From NCBI GenBank assembly GCA_029718625.1, contig CM056380.1:104289893-104353892 (forward strand): a stretch of 64,000 bases of DNA, in the 5' to 3' direction. The notes below the pieces were generated by a model. That model worked only from the letters and a program-made list of their open reading frames with translations, was not told where the DNA came from and did not search any database. Positions within the stretch are counted from its first letter, which is position 1. Each line of letters starts with the position of its first letter. The DNA comes from Synaphobranchus kaupii. Its lineage: Eukaryota; Chordata; Actinopteri; Anguilliformes; Synaphobranchidae. Below, piece by piece: positions 49,101 to 58,100 of this stretch. Both the position numbers and the translations under genes were made by a program.

Positions 49101-52100
49101 AATAATAATAATAATAATACATTCAGTTTATATAGCGCTTTTCTGAATAATAATTTAATGACTTCCTGCCAGATGGCGCGGGACTGCCGCTCTTGGTGTA
49201 AATCCGGGGTTGGAAAATAAAAATAGCTAACACAGTAACGTTACTGGCTTCAACTTGTAGCTAAGTCTGACACTCGGCTGGGGACAACGACAACGTTATC
49301 TCTCGCAATCAGGCTGACACACTGGACACTCACGAAGAAACTTCATCTAAATATCCCTAACACAAGCAAGGCTGGCACTCGGCTGCTCGAAAATAGAAAA
49401 ATGCCAGTGGCAGTTGACAGCTTTTATATCGGACGTTAGCTAGCATTAGCTTTCACTTTAAGCTTCAGAAAGAAACGACACAACCTGAACCAGTGAGCTA
49501 GGTTAACTAAGTTTACCACTGTCAAATAGCTAGCTAACTAACTTTGCTAAATGGTAAACTTGCCTACCTCAGGTTTCTTCTTTGCATTACATCCAAGTAA
49601 ATTAATCCACAAAAAAGTAAAGTAGCTAGCTAGCTAATCCATTTCAGTGGTCTGGTTAAAGTGAAGCATTGTGGGAATTGTGGTCTTATAACAACAAATG
49701 AAGATCAAGCTTCCAAAATTTGATATTCACACAAAGTGATATTTTGAAATGTAGAAATCCTCCAGAAGGAAAATTGCAGTGATATGTCATAGTAAAATAC
49801 ATGCACTAAATACCCCTTTAAGGGTTTAGGGTGTTTGTTTTTAGCTATGGGGACTACAGTGGCCTGTTTCCAGAGCTTTGGCACTGTCTGCTGACTGAGT
49901 GACATATGGAAGATGCCACTGTACACCGGGCCTAGTTGTTCGGCACATAACTTCAGCACACAACCTCCTATCCCATCTGGCCCCGGGCCTTTTCTCACCT
50001 TGCTTTGTCCTGATCACACTCCTTTCACTAAAAAAAGCTGCTACTTCACATAATGTTTTTAATTTTAAGAACATCAATTTCCTGTGTAAAATCTGATACG
50101 CCCAACCCAACATAAAATGTATTCAGGTCTTGTGCCAGCTGTTCATCAGAGTTGTACACAGAAATGAAAAAATCATGTAAAGGCTGGGGAAGTAAGCTAT
50201 TTGTTTTAAGACATATATCAACATATTTGTGTTCTTTTTTTTGTTATGAAACAACAACAGTAAAAAATCTTGCCAGATAACAATTTTTGGCATGATTCAC
50301 ATTTGTGTTTCAGCACGAAAAGCAATCCCAAGTCATGTTGGATGAAATGATGAGAAACCTTAAGGCTAAGAAAAGGAAGAAAAAAGAGGATAAAAAAGCC
50401 ATTAAATTTGTTAAAGACAATCTTGATTTCATCAAGGAATTGATTGATCCACCCAATCATCATTTCAAGGAAAGGACTGATCCACCCAAGGTGAGTCCCA
50501 GTACCATGCAGGGTAATATATAGACGTGAACCTCAAGTAAGGTAAAGCATTAGAGCATGAGAGTGGTCTGTGGTACTCTGCAGTTCTGCTGCCACATGCC
50601 AATACTAACTTTCATAGGCTACTGAAATGCATCAATGTTACGAACATGTATATGGGGACCCCCCCACCCCTCAAAAGTATTTTGCCCACACCCCACACAC
50701 TTTTGTTGCTTTTGTTACACAAATAAGCAACACCTCGACATCTCAGTGTATCCCCTTTGATGCAGGTATTTAAATTTGCAGTTTAACAAATGTTTATCTG
50801 GTGAATTGGTACCATCAACACATGTGGTTTATTCAATTATCATCAAACACTGTAGCCTAAAATGTGCCAACAGAAGTAATACTATAGACCACAGAAGTGG
50901 GACGCCGGAAGTTGGTACTAGGAAGGATCTGTCAAATTTTCCCAAAGACAATTTCTCTAATACAAATTTTTGTAAAAACAAAAGATCACAGAAACGTCTA
51001 TCCTACCAAGTTTCCTCATATGAAGTAATTACATTACATTACATTACATTTATTTAGCAGACGCTTTTATCCAAAGCGACGTACAGTAAGTGCGTACAGA
51101 GACATCATCATCATTACAGAACAGACAAGGCAAAGGATGTGCTTTGCCTTGTCTGTTCTGTAATGATGATGATGTCTCTGTACGCACTTACTGTACAGAG
51201 ACATCATCATCATTACAGAACAGACAAGGCAAAGCACATCCTTTGCCTTGTCTGTTCTGTAATGATGATGATGTCTCTGTACAGTAAGTGCGTACAGAGA
51301 CATCATCATCATTACAGAACAGACAAGGCAAAGCACATCCTTTGCATAATGTAGCAGCTATCCCTAGCAATGAACGTTGACTGTAGTTCACAGTAAGCTG
51401 TGGGCAAATCAGCAACACCACACTTTCATTCCAAATACTATTATAAACTATACTATTATAAACCATTCCAAATACTATTATAAACTATGCTATTATAAAC
51501 CATTCCAAATACTATTATAAACTATACTATTATAAACCATTCCAAATACTATTATAAACTATGCTATTATAAACCATTCCAAATACTATTATAAACTATA
51601 ATAAACAGACAGGAAAACACAGGGAACAGGGAACTGATATTCCTAGGTGAGGATATCAGTCAAGGTGGAGTCTGAAGAGGTGTGTCTTCAGGCCTCGACG
51701 GAATGCAGGCAGGGTTGGAGTAGAACGTAGGAGAATGGGAAGTTCATTCCACCACTGAGGTGTTAATGTGGAAAAACTCCGCAGTCGGGACAAGCGAGAG
51801 CCTTTGACACGGAGGGGGGGAAGTGCCAGTCGCCCTGCTGTAGAAGAGCAAAGTGGTCGAGCAGGAACATAGTTCTGGATTAAGTCCTGCAGGTAGGCGG
51901 GGCCTGTCCTATTTGCTGCAGTGTAGGCCAGGGTCAGAACTTTGAACCTGATCCTGGCTGCAACTGGCAGCCAGTGGAGAGACCTCAGCAGGGGGGTTAC
52001 GTGGGAAAATTTCGGGAGGTTGAACACAAGCCGGGCAGCTGCATTCTGGATGAGTTGAAGAGGCAGAATGGCGCAGGCCGGTAGGCTTGCGAGCAGGGAG

Positions 52101-55100: not shown

Positions 55101-58100
55101 TACGTTACAGGATGCAGATGAAAGTTAATGCCAGCTATGATGTAGCTAATGTAGCCACTGTGCTTTAGCTAGCGTGTGCACCCACTTCATGCTGACTTTA
55201 TCTGGAAGTTTTCACAATGGGGTTTCATCGGATGCTGCAGGAAACCGTGACAGATGGCTCTGTCACAGTCAAGTTAATTAGCTACTGTCCTTTCATATGA
55301 TTGGTTGCGCACTGGCTGGTCATCGCGATTTGCGCAGAAGTTAAAATATTTTAGCTTGCCTGAACAGTGCAGTACTCGCGATTCGTACCGCTCCCAGCGG
55401 CACCGGCAGAATCGCACCTTGTCGCTCTCTCCATTGGAATTTAATGACTTCCTGCCAGATGGCACGGGACTGCTGCTCTTGGTGTAAATCCGGGGTTGGA
55501 AAATGAAAATAGCTAACACAGTAATGTTACTGGCTTCAACTTGTAGCTAAGTCTGACACTCGGCTGGGGATAACGACAACGTTATCTCTCGCAATCAGGC
55601 TGACACACTGGACACTCACGAAGAAACTTCATCTAAATATCCCTCACACAAGCAGGCTGGCACTCGGCTGCTCAAAAATAGAAAAATGCCAGTGGCAGTT
55701 GACAGCTTTTATATCGGACGTTAGCTAGCATTAGCTTTCACTTTAAGCTTCAGAAAGAAACGACACAACCTGAACCAGTGAGCTAGGTTAACTAAGTTTA
55801 GCACCGTCAAATAGCTAGCTAACTAACTTTGCTAAATGGTAAACTTGCCTACCGCAGGTTTCTTCTTTGCATTACATGCAAGTAAATTAATCCACAAAAA
55901 AGTAAAGTAGCTAGCTAGCTAGCTAATCCATTTCAGTGGTCCGGTTAAAGTGAAGAAATGATTCACATTTGTGTTTCAGCACGCAAAGCAATCCCAAGCC
56001 ATGTTGGATAAAATGATCAAAGCCCTTAAGGATAAGGAACCTGAGAGAGAGGAGGAAGAAGAAGAAGCCATTGAATTCATTCAATCCAGTCTAGTTTCCA
56101 TCAAGGAATCGATTGATCCCAAGGTGAGTCCCAGTACTATGCAGGGTAATATATAGACGTGAACCTCAAGTAAGGTAAAGCATTAGAGCATGAGAGTGGT
56201 CTGTGGTACTCTGCAGTTCTGCTGCCACATGCCAGTACTAACTTTCATAGGCTACTGAAATGCATTAATGTTACGAACATGCCCTCAGAGTAAGGGCGTA
56301 GGAACCATTGTATATGGGGACCCCCCCACCCCTCAAAAGTATTTTGCCCACACCCCACACACACTTTTGTTGCTTTTGTTACACAAATAAGCAACACCTC
56401 GATGTCTCAGTGTATCCCCTTTGATGCATGTATTTAAATTTGCAGTTTAACAAATGTTTATCTGGTGAATTGGTACCATCAACACGTGGTTTATTCAATG
56501 ATCATCAAACACTGTAGCCTAAAATATGCCAACAGAAGTAATACTATAGACCACAGAAGTGGGACGCCGGACGTTGGTACTAGGAAGGATCTGTCAAATT
56601 TTCCAAAAGACAATTTCTCTAATACAAATTTTTGTAAAAACAAAAGATCACAGAAACGTCTATCCTACCAAGTTTCCTCGTATGAAGTAATAGCTACAGA
56701 GAGAGCAAAAATCTCCATTTCATCCTCATTTTGACAAAGGTACAAGTGTGTAGTGCACGCTTAACATTAACAAACTGCACGCCCCTTCAGTAGAGTAAAT
56801 TTAGGGAATTTACATCACTGTTGCCAGTGCTACTGCCATTAGACGCTACCCTGTCAAGCTTTCTAACTTCTCAAGAGCCAAAATATCAATAATGTAAAAA
56901 TGAAATGATAGTTGACAAACACATAGTTAAACGTACTTTATTCTGTATAGCAGGTCATTACAAAAAGGAAATGACGTAGGGTTATCAAGTGTGGTATCTC
57001 TCCAGGCTATATGGAAATGTAGACCATTTGCATACTATGGCCAGTAAAGATGTTTAATTTGCTAAAAATCAAACAAATCTACCAAATGACTGACTTGACT
57101 ATTAGAAATGACTGCCGTGTTTTGCATCTCATAGGTGTATTATGGACATGTTGCTTATATTTAAGGACTTTGTAAATGCCTACAGCAAATAACAGGGACA
57201 ATTACACATACTGGTACCAGAAGGCACTTGCACTACTGTGGTCTATACTTGGTCTAATATAGTTGTATGCAGTTGTTTATGCAAATACAAAGCCAGTAAA
57301 AGAGTGCTGCACACATTTCGTATCTAAGCAAGGCTACATGTCAGAATCGTGTGAATTTTAAATTACTTGGGCAGCTAATGCTAGCTGGCTTTCTCTGTAG
57401 CTTCTACATCAGTTCAGTTGTGATACGCAAGTAACTTTTTCAGATGACAAATTCCATGAAGCAGTATTTTATTATACAATACTTATATTCTCTGCGGAAG
57501 TACGGCGGCGGAGCGAACGTGGCCATTGCAACTTGTTGCTCTTCTTTGTTGTTGTAGTTGACCAGTGCCGGCACTACATTCGTAGGTAGCATAAAGTATT
57601 GCTCCGCCACCGTACTTTCACAGAGAATATAGGTCAGCACAAAGTAAAGGATTCAACGATAGTTTGACTTCAAAAATGATGGTATAAACCCTCAAAATAA
57701 CCCCGATGGACTGTCGTCATATTTTATTTGCTTTGGGTGCACTGTGGAGTATTTGGTAGTGGATGCTACCGTTTACCTTAGAGTTGCGCTAGCATTAGCA
57801 ACGTGTGTATGTCCAAAAGAAGGGACAGCATGGAATTAGCTGAAAATGGTTTCCATCAATCAACTACATCATGGGTAAGTTGTAATTGAGACATTACGTC
57901 CAAAATTTCGAACTATCCCTTTAATGGAATACATCGTTCTGAACAAGGAAAAACTTGAATGGTGTCGATATAATTGTTGAAACAACTCTGTTGACATGCC
58001 CACTGCCGACGCCCCGTTTGACCTAGAGTTACAAAATGTGGTGTACAGGTCTCTCTGCTCATGTTGAACAAATTTACCTCAAGGATCCATGAAGTCAGCC

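What the first reader, a model, noticed from the sequence alone, without database searches (positions are those of the whole stretch)
50314..56123. Tandemly duplicated exon in a SAMHD1-like gene with far more change in the exon than in its introns
Exons 6a and 6b lie in two copies of one duplicated block. In the flanking introns I compared (about 155 bases after the donors, about 160 bases further down, and about 100 bases upstream) the copies differ by 2-4 percent. In about 141 alignable exon bases I count roughly 30 differences, changing about half of the codons, with only about two synonymous changes (one Phe, one Leu). The splice sites are identical and both exons are phase 0. This suggests diversifying selection on the exon, fitting known arms-race evolution of SAMHD1 in mammals. 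Alternatives are gene conversion of the exon from another paralogue, or relaxed constraint with homogenised introns.
Basis: partly seen in the sequence, partly recalled or inferred. Interest (0 to 1): 0.88.

Follow-up and report, generated by a model that had tools for sequence, protein, structure and literature searches.

The report
Hypervariable exon arrays in eel SAMHD1-like genes
In a deep-sea eel, genes related to the antiviral enzyme SAMHD1 carry tandem copies of one exon that starts with a catalytic histidine; these exons differ far more than the introns around them, which points to selection for variety at one spot on the protein surface.

Summary
The exon/intron contrast is real and larger than reported. 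Exons 6a and 6b differ at 32 of 141 aligned bases; their flanks by about 2%. The window is from Synaphobranchus kaupii. It lies in a cluster of at least five SAMHD1-like genes holding 11 full copies of this exon: five, two, two, one and one. All 11 are open, phase 0-0 and begin with the counterpart of human His233. A moray protein model reads as five such units in series. The variable patch continues into the exon 5 tail and exon 7 start.

One number needs correcting: 6a/6b synonymous change is also high (6 of 24 sites; dN/dS about 0.9). Over the array omega is 1.7-1.9 and a site model with selected codons fits better, more weakly without one defective copy. Exon and flank trees reject each other. 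Best reading: diversifying selection on a helical hairpin beside the active site, inside introns kept alike by duplication and gene conversion. One-at-a-time splicing is inferred; there is no RNA evidence. Fast exons in quiet introns are known; arrays of an exon carrying a catalytic residue are the new part.

The parts
16391..16551 (+). exon 2 of the SAMHD1-like gene (HD-domain start; holds the His167 counterpart)
16926..17035 (+). exon 3
22967..23041 (+). exon 3b, copy 1 (75 bp, phase 1-1, [24 protein letters not shown])
   Evidence: the same exon is in the annotated paralogue P0121
28217..28285 (+). exon 3b, copy 2 (69 bp): 3 substitutions that change the protein, one of them at the edge of a 6-bp in-frame deletion
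34984..35070 (+). exon 4 (His206/Asp207 counterparts, CHDLG)
36228..36343 (+). exon 5 (GHGPFSH, then a variable charged tail ending NWT)
48580..54362 (+). duplicated block, copy a (holds exon 6a)
50314..50490 (+). exon 6a: basic hairpin unit, net charge +6, begins HEKQ
51028..52590 (-). LINE-like insertion present only in copy a (related to 44541-47011)
   Evidence: type judged by eye from the ORF
54555..58454 (+). duplicated block, copy b (holds exon 6b)
55980..56123 (+). exon 6b: acidic hairpin unit, net charge -5, begins HAKQ (Glu234 counterpart is Ala)
62609..62697 (+). exon 7 (variable first five codons, then [24 protein letters not shown], unchanged in five genes)
63677..63785 (+). exon 8

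Best explanation
Exon 6 of this eel SAMHD1-like (dNTPase-family) gene encodes a small helical hairpin. It begins with the catalytic histidine (human His233), and its turns are predicted on the outside of the fold. SHOWN: the exon has been duplicated in tandem inside at least three of five clustered paralogous genes (5, 2 and 2 full copies). The copies keep the splice sites (one exception), the phase, the histidine and several anchor positions, but differ strongly in the middle, in length and in charge (+6 to -8). The introns around them mostly differ by about 1-5%. SUPPORTED BY TESTS: change in the hairpin has been favoured (diversifying selection). Duplication plus gene conversion has separated exon histories from flank histories and kept the intron blocks alike, while exon diversity was retained. 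INFERRED: each transcript uses one copy, because the HD fold has one place for it and every copy brings its own His233; this would give isoforms with opposite surface charge beside the catalytic pocket. INFERRED and weaker: the varied surface contacts a changing partner such as a viral antagonist.
For: 11 full copies, all on C5 within 103.716-104.659 Mb. Exons 5, 7 and 8 are open in all five genes examined; the spliced window model is open from exon 2 to 8, exon 3b left out. Distinct exon gaps 7 of 7 multiples of three; internal flank gaps 2 of 12. Four non-overlapping close pairs: nonsynonymous 32 seen, 9.4 expected from the flanks, P 6e-9; synonymous 7 seen, 2.2 expected, P 0.007. M2a over M1a 2dlnL 20.0 for 11 copies, 15.7 without P5. 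The four codons picked with 11 copies (18, 21, 36, 39) are P0121 residues 223, 226, 240 and 243, at or next to the turns between helices 206-224, 229-240 and 242-249 of a model with pLDDT 88.8. Codons 1, 3, 9, 16, 42, 45 and 47 are the same amino acid in 11 of 11 copies. The patch continues in the exon 5 tail (pN 0.117, pS 0.042 over the six pairs without gene P, summed by hand) and the exon 7 head (pN 0.24, pS 0), with 0 changes in the rest of exon 7; flank 0.019. Exon data reject the flank tree (AU p 4e-6) and flank data reject the exon tree (p 0.012). His233 coordinates Mg, and H233A lowers kcat about 300-fold (PMC7311409, passages seen).
Against: No RNA evidence that either exon is spliced. 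M0 omega alone is weak: 1.87, p about 0.02; without P5 1.70, p about 0.06; bootstrap range 0.80-4.13 for nine copies. Without P5, the copy with a broken acceptor, only codon 21 stays above posterior 0.8, so the placing of selection at the turns rests largely on P5. Codon models assume one tree, which the recombination breaks, and branch lengths were held fixed in M1a/M2a. Synonymous sites are also raised, so part of the exon excess is not explained by amino-acid selection alone. One close pair (Wb-Rb) shows no excess: 2 seen, 1.7 expected. With gene P included, exon 5 tail pN and pS are equal (0.164, 0.169), though its alignment is shifted. Exons 6a and 6b are multiples of three, so double inclusion or skipping would not break the frame, and nothing found enforces exclusive use. 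Four later copies (Wb, Rb, P2, P3) have Ala at the Glu after His233, which is Glu in 54 of 55 aligned sequences. P5 has lost its acceptor AG and Rp is truncated.
Confidence: 0.65

Rival explanations
1. Serial inclusion: all copies are spliced into one mRNA, so the protein carries a growing row of helical hairpins; only the first unit serves the active site and later units are free to change.
For: The Javan moray model P0001 reads, by eye, as five units in series between exons 5 and 7, and four of the five start without the His-Glu pair. Its AF2 model makes each unit a two-helix hairpin (mean pLDDT only 68). Exons are symmetric (phase 0-0), so serial splicing keeps the frame. In this eel the first copy of each array has HE and 4 of 6 later copies have HA.
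Against: All 6 later copies in this genome keep the histidine and Lys3. The moray protein is an unverified gene prediction, which may simply have chained open exons. A second His233-bearing hairpin has no obvious place in the HD fold (inference).
Confidence: 0.25
2. Recent duplication followed only by very strong positive selection on the exon, without gene conversion.
For: Wa/Ra: 9 nonsynonymous and 1 synonymous change with flanks 0.7% apart (P 1e-6). Exon 7 head and exon 8 show nonsynonymous change with almost no synonymous change, though exon 8 (pN 0.026) is hardly above the flank (0.019).
Against: 6a/6b have 6 synonymous changes where 0.5 are expected (P 1e-5). Exon dS tree length is about four times the flank length. 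Exon and flank trees are incompatible.
Confidence: 0.15
3. A local mutational process (hotspot or slippage in the purine-rich tract) raises all change in the exon, with relaxed constraint.
For: Synonymous change is raised too; the middle is AAG/GAA-rich; trappin exons show the same raised synonymous rate 'by unknown mechanisms' (PMC2831891, passages seen).
Against: 7 of 7 distinct exon gaps are in frame; seven codons are fixed in 11 of 11 copies; M2a beats M1a; change stops at protein boundaries, e.g. first five codons of exon 7 variable and the remaining 24 unchanged in five genes; the same patch spans three exons separated by kilobases of intron.
Confidence: 0.13
4. Decaying spare exons: extra copies are non-functional relics drifting neutrally.
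For: P5 has lost its acceptor AG and Rp is cut short; four later copies have lost Glu234.
Against: Neutral drift alone cannot exceed the divergence of the flanking introns; 10 of 11 copies have intact splice sites and 11 of 11 open frames.
Confidence: 0.1

Closest known systems
Trappin multigenes of pig, cow and armadillo (PMC2831891; abstract and passages seen)
   Same: Coding exon evolves several-fold faster than introns between recent species-specific copies; dn/ds 1.0-1.9 in the three species; synonymous sites also accelerated in armadillo and pig.
   Different: There whole genes are duplicated; here an exon is duplicated inside genes, and it carries an active-site residue.
Snake venom gene families such as phospholipase A2 (PMC6062510, passages seen; conservation of their introns is recalled)
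   Same: Clustered duplicates with accelerated evolution of the coding part.
   Different: Whole-gene duplication of secreted venom proteins; here enzyme relatives with exon arrays.
Mutually exclusive tandem exons, with Dscam as the extreme case (Dscam recalled; reviews seen only as search listing)
   Same: Tandem homologous exons of equal phase encoding one slot of a protein.
   Different: Exclusive use not shown; short docking/selector pairing was not tested (looked only for inverted repeats of 40 bp or more in 44-64 kb). These copies look young and hypervariable; the abstract of PMC9741552 in the listing calls most known human events ancient.
Vertebrate SAMHD1
   Same: HD fold, catalytic residues, His233 at the start of the exon 6 segment, 37-40% identity in the 50 structure matches shown (paralogue P0121).
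   Different: Charged insertion in the exon 5 tail, hypervariable exon 6, exon arrays, no SAM domain in the annotated paralogue P0121.
Human red/green opsin genes with introns homogenised by conversion while exons stay distinct (recalled, not looked up)
   Same: Introns more alike than exons because selection keeps the exons apart.
   Different: Between genes, not between exons of one gene.

Membership tests
SAMHD1-like dNTP triphosphohydrolases | HD-domain catalytic residues (human H167, H206, D207, H215, D218, H233, D311; numbering from a recalled sequence) | tested here: met
   Present in the spliced window model and in P0121; in alignment A4 the columns of H60, H164, D165 and H206 hold one residue in every sequence without a gap there, D287 invariant; the H215 and D218 counterparts vary in 2 and 4 of 56
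SAMHD1-like dNTP triphosphohydrolases | SAMHD1 fold | tested here: met
   AF2 model of paralogue P0121 (gene Q of this cluster, not the window gene); best PDB matches SAMHD1, TM 0.85 by target length for the first
SAMHD1-like dNTP triphosphohydrolases | N-terminal SAM domain (of SAMHD1 proper) | tested here: not met
   P0121 starts MAANTQINKIFNDP directly at the HD core (read by eye); exon 1 of the window gene was not looked for
SAMHD1-like dNTP triphosphohydrolases | GTP/dNTP-activated tetramer and dNTPase activity | not testable with these tools
   needs protein
Mutually exclusive exon cluster | Tandem homologous exons of same phase with intact splice sites | tested here: met
   10 of 11 copies have AG/GT sites, 11 of 11 are multiples of three and open
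Mutually exclusive exon cluster | Exactly one copy per transcript | not testable with these tools
   no RNA-seq available
Mutually exclusive exon cluster | Mechanism that prevents double inclusion (frame, steric or RNA pairing) | tested here: inconclusive
   Frame does not enforce it (177 and 144 bp); the intron between 6a and 6b is about 5.5 kb; short RNA pairing not tested
Accelerated-exon multigene families | Exon divergence well above intron divergence between recent copies | tested here: met
Accelerated-exon multigene families | dN/dS above 1 | tested here: inconclusive
   6a/6b about 0.9; array 1.7-1.9, bootstrap 0.80-4.13; M2a over M1a

The most novel reading that the evidence does not exclude
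Eels have turned a SAMHD1-type antiviral enzyme into a splice-selectable recognition system: tandem arrays of hypervariable hairpin exons, each bringing its own catalytic histidine, let one gene make several enzyme surfaces. Copies that have lost the adjacent, nearly invariant glutamate may make inactive or altered subunits that tune the oligomer.
Probability: 0.2. Interest if true: 0.87.

Novelty: new variant of a known kind. Interest (0 to 1): 0.62.

Why it matters
If the exon copies are used in turn, this would be a vertebrate immune-type enzyme diversified by alternative exons rather than only by gene copies, with the variable piece placed at the catalytic pocket. It also offers a natural test of how selection and gene conversion act together: introns, synonymous sites and amino-acid sites of the same young duplicates can be compared in 11 copies within 1 Mb.

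Tried and rejected
Rejected: a chance or one-off pair (11 copies in five genes). Rejected among the copies found: conversion of the whole exon from an identical paralogue. Rejected: frameshifted or dead exons 6 in the window (both open). Rejected: a dN/dS well above 1 for 6a/6b (about 0.9). Assembly error was not tested directly; 20% exon divergence and different insertions between the copies argue against collapse.

Led nowhere: Myripristis 'isoforms' X1/X2 of equal length differ from the exon 5 tail to about residue 370, not just in exon 6, so they are no example of exclusive exons. A search for other array proteins with P0001 residues 150-445 found only P0001 among 5621 candidates. Literature: 'SAMHD1' + 'exon duplication' gave one paper, on primates by its title; 'SAMHD1' + zebrafish/paralog/duplication, + teleost/positive selection, + fish/gene family expansion gave nothing on this by title and start of abstract. 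Absence from print is claimed only for those searches of one open-access library.

Rows dropped: truncated copy Rp left out of all exon statistics; X1 left out of the flank trees (its 3' flank carries an extra insertion) and; P5 left out in the second codon fit and; 100-bp flank windows at or beyond a break in homology left out (for 6a/6b this includes the nearest upstream window, 14/100); gene P left out of the second exon 5 tail figure, because its tail alignment is shifted. The 41 fish sequences were picked by me from the 120 listed. The script ended with an error after printing the figures quoted; the missing step was run. On re-checking, the confidence of the best explanation was lowered from 0.68 to 0.65, because without P5 only one codon is picked by M2a, and the hotspot rival raised from 0.12 to 0.13.
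Full report
WHERE IT IS. The window is G000:C5:104289893-104353892 of a 1.5-Gb genome. A protein search returned SKAU_G00178430 of Synaphobranchus kaupii (P0121). Its contig length, 116,263,768, equals that of C5, and it is 100% identical, over the stretch scored, to what I call gene Q in the same cluster. The window gene (W) is open from exon 2 to exon 8 (exon 3b left out of that model). 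It matches SAMHD1 by sequence and Pfam HD. The annotated paralogue P0121 has no SAM domain by eye and folds as SAMHD1 (AF2 pLDDT 88.8, pTM 0.88; nearly all of the 50 PDB matches shown are named SAMHD1).

THE OBSERVATION. Exon 6a (50314-50490) and 6b (55980-56123) sit in two copies of one block. They differ at 32 of 141 aligned bases; nine homologous 100-bp flank windows total 18 of 900, one further window that spans a break being left out. For this pair alone dN/dS is about 0.9.

IT IS AN ARRAY. A DNA search of the genome with exon 6a gave 18 matching pieces, all on C5 between 103.716 and 104.659 Mb. Reading those regions gave 11 full copies and one truncated copy: gene P has five, about 4.4-6.2 kb apart, between its exons 5 and 7; gene W has two; gene R two plus the truncated one; genes Q and X one each. 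All 11 are multiples of three, open, and begin with a histidine codon; exons 5 and 7 are in the matching phase in all five genes. Ten have AG/GT sites; P5 has lost its acceptor AG. All seven distinct exon gaps are multiples of three, while the internal flank gaps are 2, 2, 17, 1, 1 (3') and 1, 4, 2, 4, 3, 1, 3 (5'), 2 of 12.

WHAT THE EXON ENCODES. It starts at the counterpart of human His233 (numbering from a recalled human sequence). That residue coordinates an active-site magnesium, and its alanine mutant loses about 300-fold in kcat (PMC7311409, passages seen). In the P0121 model the exon is residues 206-264: helices 206-224, 229-240 and 242-249, then a lower-confidence tail. Codon columns 1, 3, 9, 16, 42, 45 and 47 are fixed in 11 of 11 copies. 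With all 11 copies M2a picks columns 18, 21, 36 and 39 (residues 223, 226, 240 and 243), at or next to the turns; without P5 it picks only column 21. Net charge runs from +6 (6a) to -8 (P3); 6b is -5. Four copies (Wb, Rb, P2, P3) have Ala in place of the Glu after the histidine, which is Glu in 54 of the 55 aligned sequences with a residue there.

THE PATCH CROSSES EXONS. In five genes (10 pairs) the exon 7 head (five codons) has pN 0.24 and pS 0, and the remaining 24 codons show no change. Exon 8 has pN 0.026 and pS 0.002. The exon 5 head has pN 0.035 and pS 0.073. The exon 5 tail has pN 0.164 and pS 0.169 with gene P, whose alignment is shifted, and about 0.117 and 0.042 over the six pairs without it (summed by hand). 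Flanks: 0.019. In 41 fish SAMHD1-like proteins, picked from the listing, the same stretch is the most variable part of residues 113-360: mean entropy 1.93 (224-232) and 1.70 (233-293), against 0.70 (113-223) and 0.77 (294-360). The C-terminal part (361-582) is as variable, 1.74, so the patch is not the only variable region of the family.

SELECTION OR SOMETHING ELSE. Array-wide omega is 1.87 (2dlnL 5.2 against omega 1), and 1.70 without P5 (3.6). M2a over M1a: 20.0 and 15.7, with branch lengths held fixed. Codon bootstrap of omega: 0.80-4.13. Four non-overlapping close pairs give 32 nonsynonymous changes where flanks predict 9.4 (P 6e-9), and 7 synonymous where 2.2 are predicted (P 0.007); one of the four (Wb-Rb) shows no excess on its own. 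So both kinds of site are raised, and selection on amino acids is not the whole story. Exon dS tree length is 0.46 (0.22-0.89), against 0.105 for the 3' flank on its own tree and 0.120 on the exon tree. Exon data reject the flank tree (AU p 4e-6) and flank data reject the exon tree (p 0.012). Recombination has therefore separated exons from their flanks. I read this as introns kept alike by duplication and conversion, while exon variety was retained and extended by selection. A local mutation hotspot remains a rival; it must explain the in-frame gaps, the fixed codons, and the sharp stop inside exon 7.

A SECOND PAIR IN THE SAME GENE. A 5.2-kb tandem duplication (18479-23690 / 23726-28936; 33 mismatches in 5206) carries exon 3b twice (22967-23041, 28217-28285), phase 1-1. 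Three substitutions fall in 69 aligned exon bases where 0.40 are expected (P 0.008); all change the protein, one of them at the edge of a 6-bp in-frame deletion. The exon is part of annotated P0121.

OTHER SPECIES. A moray protein model (Gymnothorax javanicus GJAV_G00169300, P0001) reads as five exon-6-like units in series; four of the five lack the His-Glu start. Its AF2 model (mean pLDDT 68) gives each unit two helices. Anguilla rostrata (P0122) and Albula glossodonta (P0126) proteins show one unit by eye. Serial inclusion is thus a live rival to one-at-a-time splicing.

WHAT IS SHOWN AND WHAT IS NOT. Shown: arrays, exon-limited divergence, frame and anchor conservation, discordant exon and flank histories. 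Supported but not settled: diversifying selection. Inferred: alternative use of copies, partner or pathogen recognition. No RNA data were available, and the genome-wide protein search could not be run because the machine stayed busy.

NOVELTY. Fast exons in quiet introns are known from trappins (PMC2831891, abstract and passages seen; synonymous sites accelerated there too) and accelerated coding change from venom genes (PMC6062510, passages seen). Tandem alternative exons are known (listing). I found no report of exon arrays in SAMHD1-type genes in the searches. I file it as a new variant of a known kind.

Noticed in passing
window 18479-23690 and 23726-28936: 5.2-kb direct tandem duplication, 99.2% identical, that duplicates exon 3b of the same gene; its exon copies also show an excess of protein-changing substitutions plus an in-frame deletion.
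   Followed up: yes
window 4461-11854: Young LTR retrotransposon with 1529-bp direct terminal repeats 99.7% identical and long gag-like and pol-like frames (type judged by eye).
   Followed up: no
window about 30936-34900 (-): LINE-like element with two long open frames, listed as 1022 and 349 codons stop to stop; the upper end of the second frame runs into exon 4 on the other strand.
   Followed up: no
window 44541-47011 and 51028-52590 (-): Two related LINE-like copies; the second is inserted in copy a of the exon 6 block and absent from copy b.
   Followed up: partly
window 51081-51345: Perfectly complementary arms of 105, 90 and 55 nt arranged back to back, a dense palindrome within the LINE-like insertion.
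   Followed up: no
window 59943-62209 (-): Open frames resembling a hAT/ZBED-type transposase, judged by eye.
   Followed up: no
L018:4169 (- strand): Truncated exon 6 copy: acceptor and about 10 codons, then a jump into sequence that elsewhere lies upstream of the b copy; suggests past loss from a longer array.
   Followed up: partly
L010 about 2863-2960 and L015 about 3188-3309: Exon 4 of genes P and Q carries a glutamate-rich insertion of differing length that gene W lacks.
   Followed up: no
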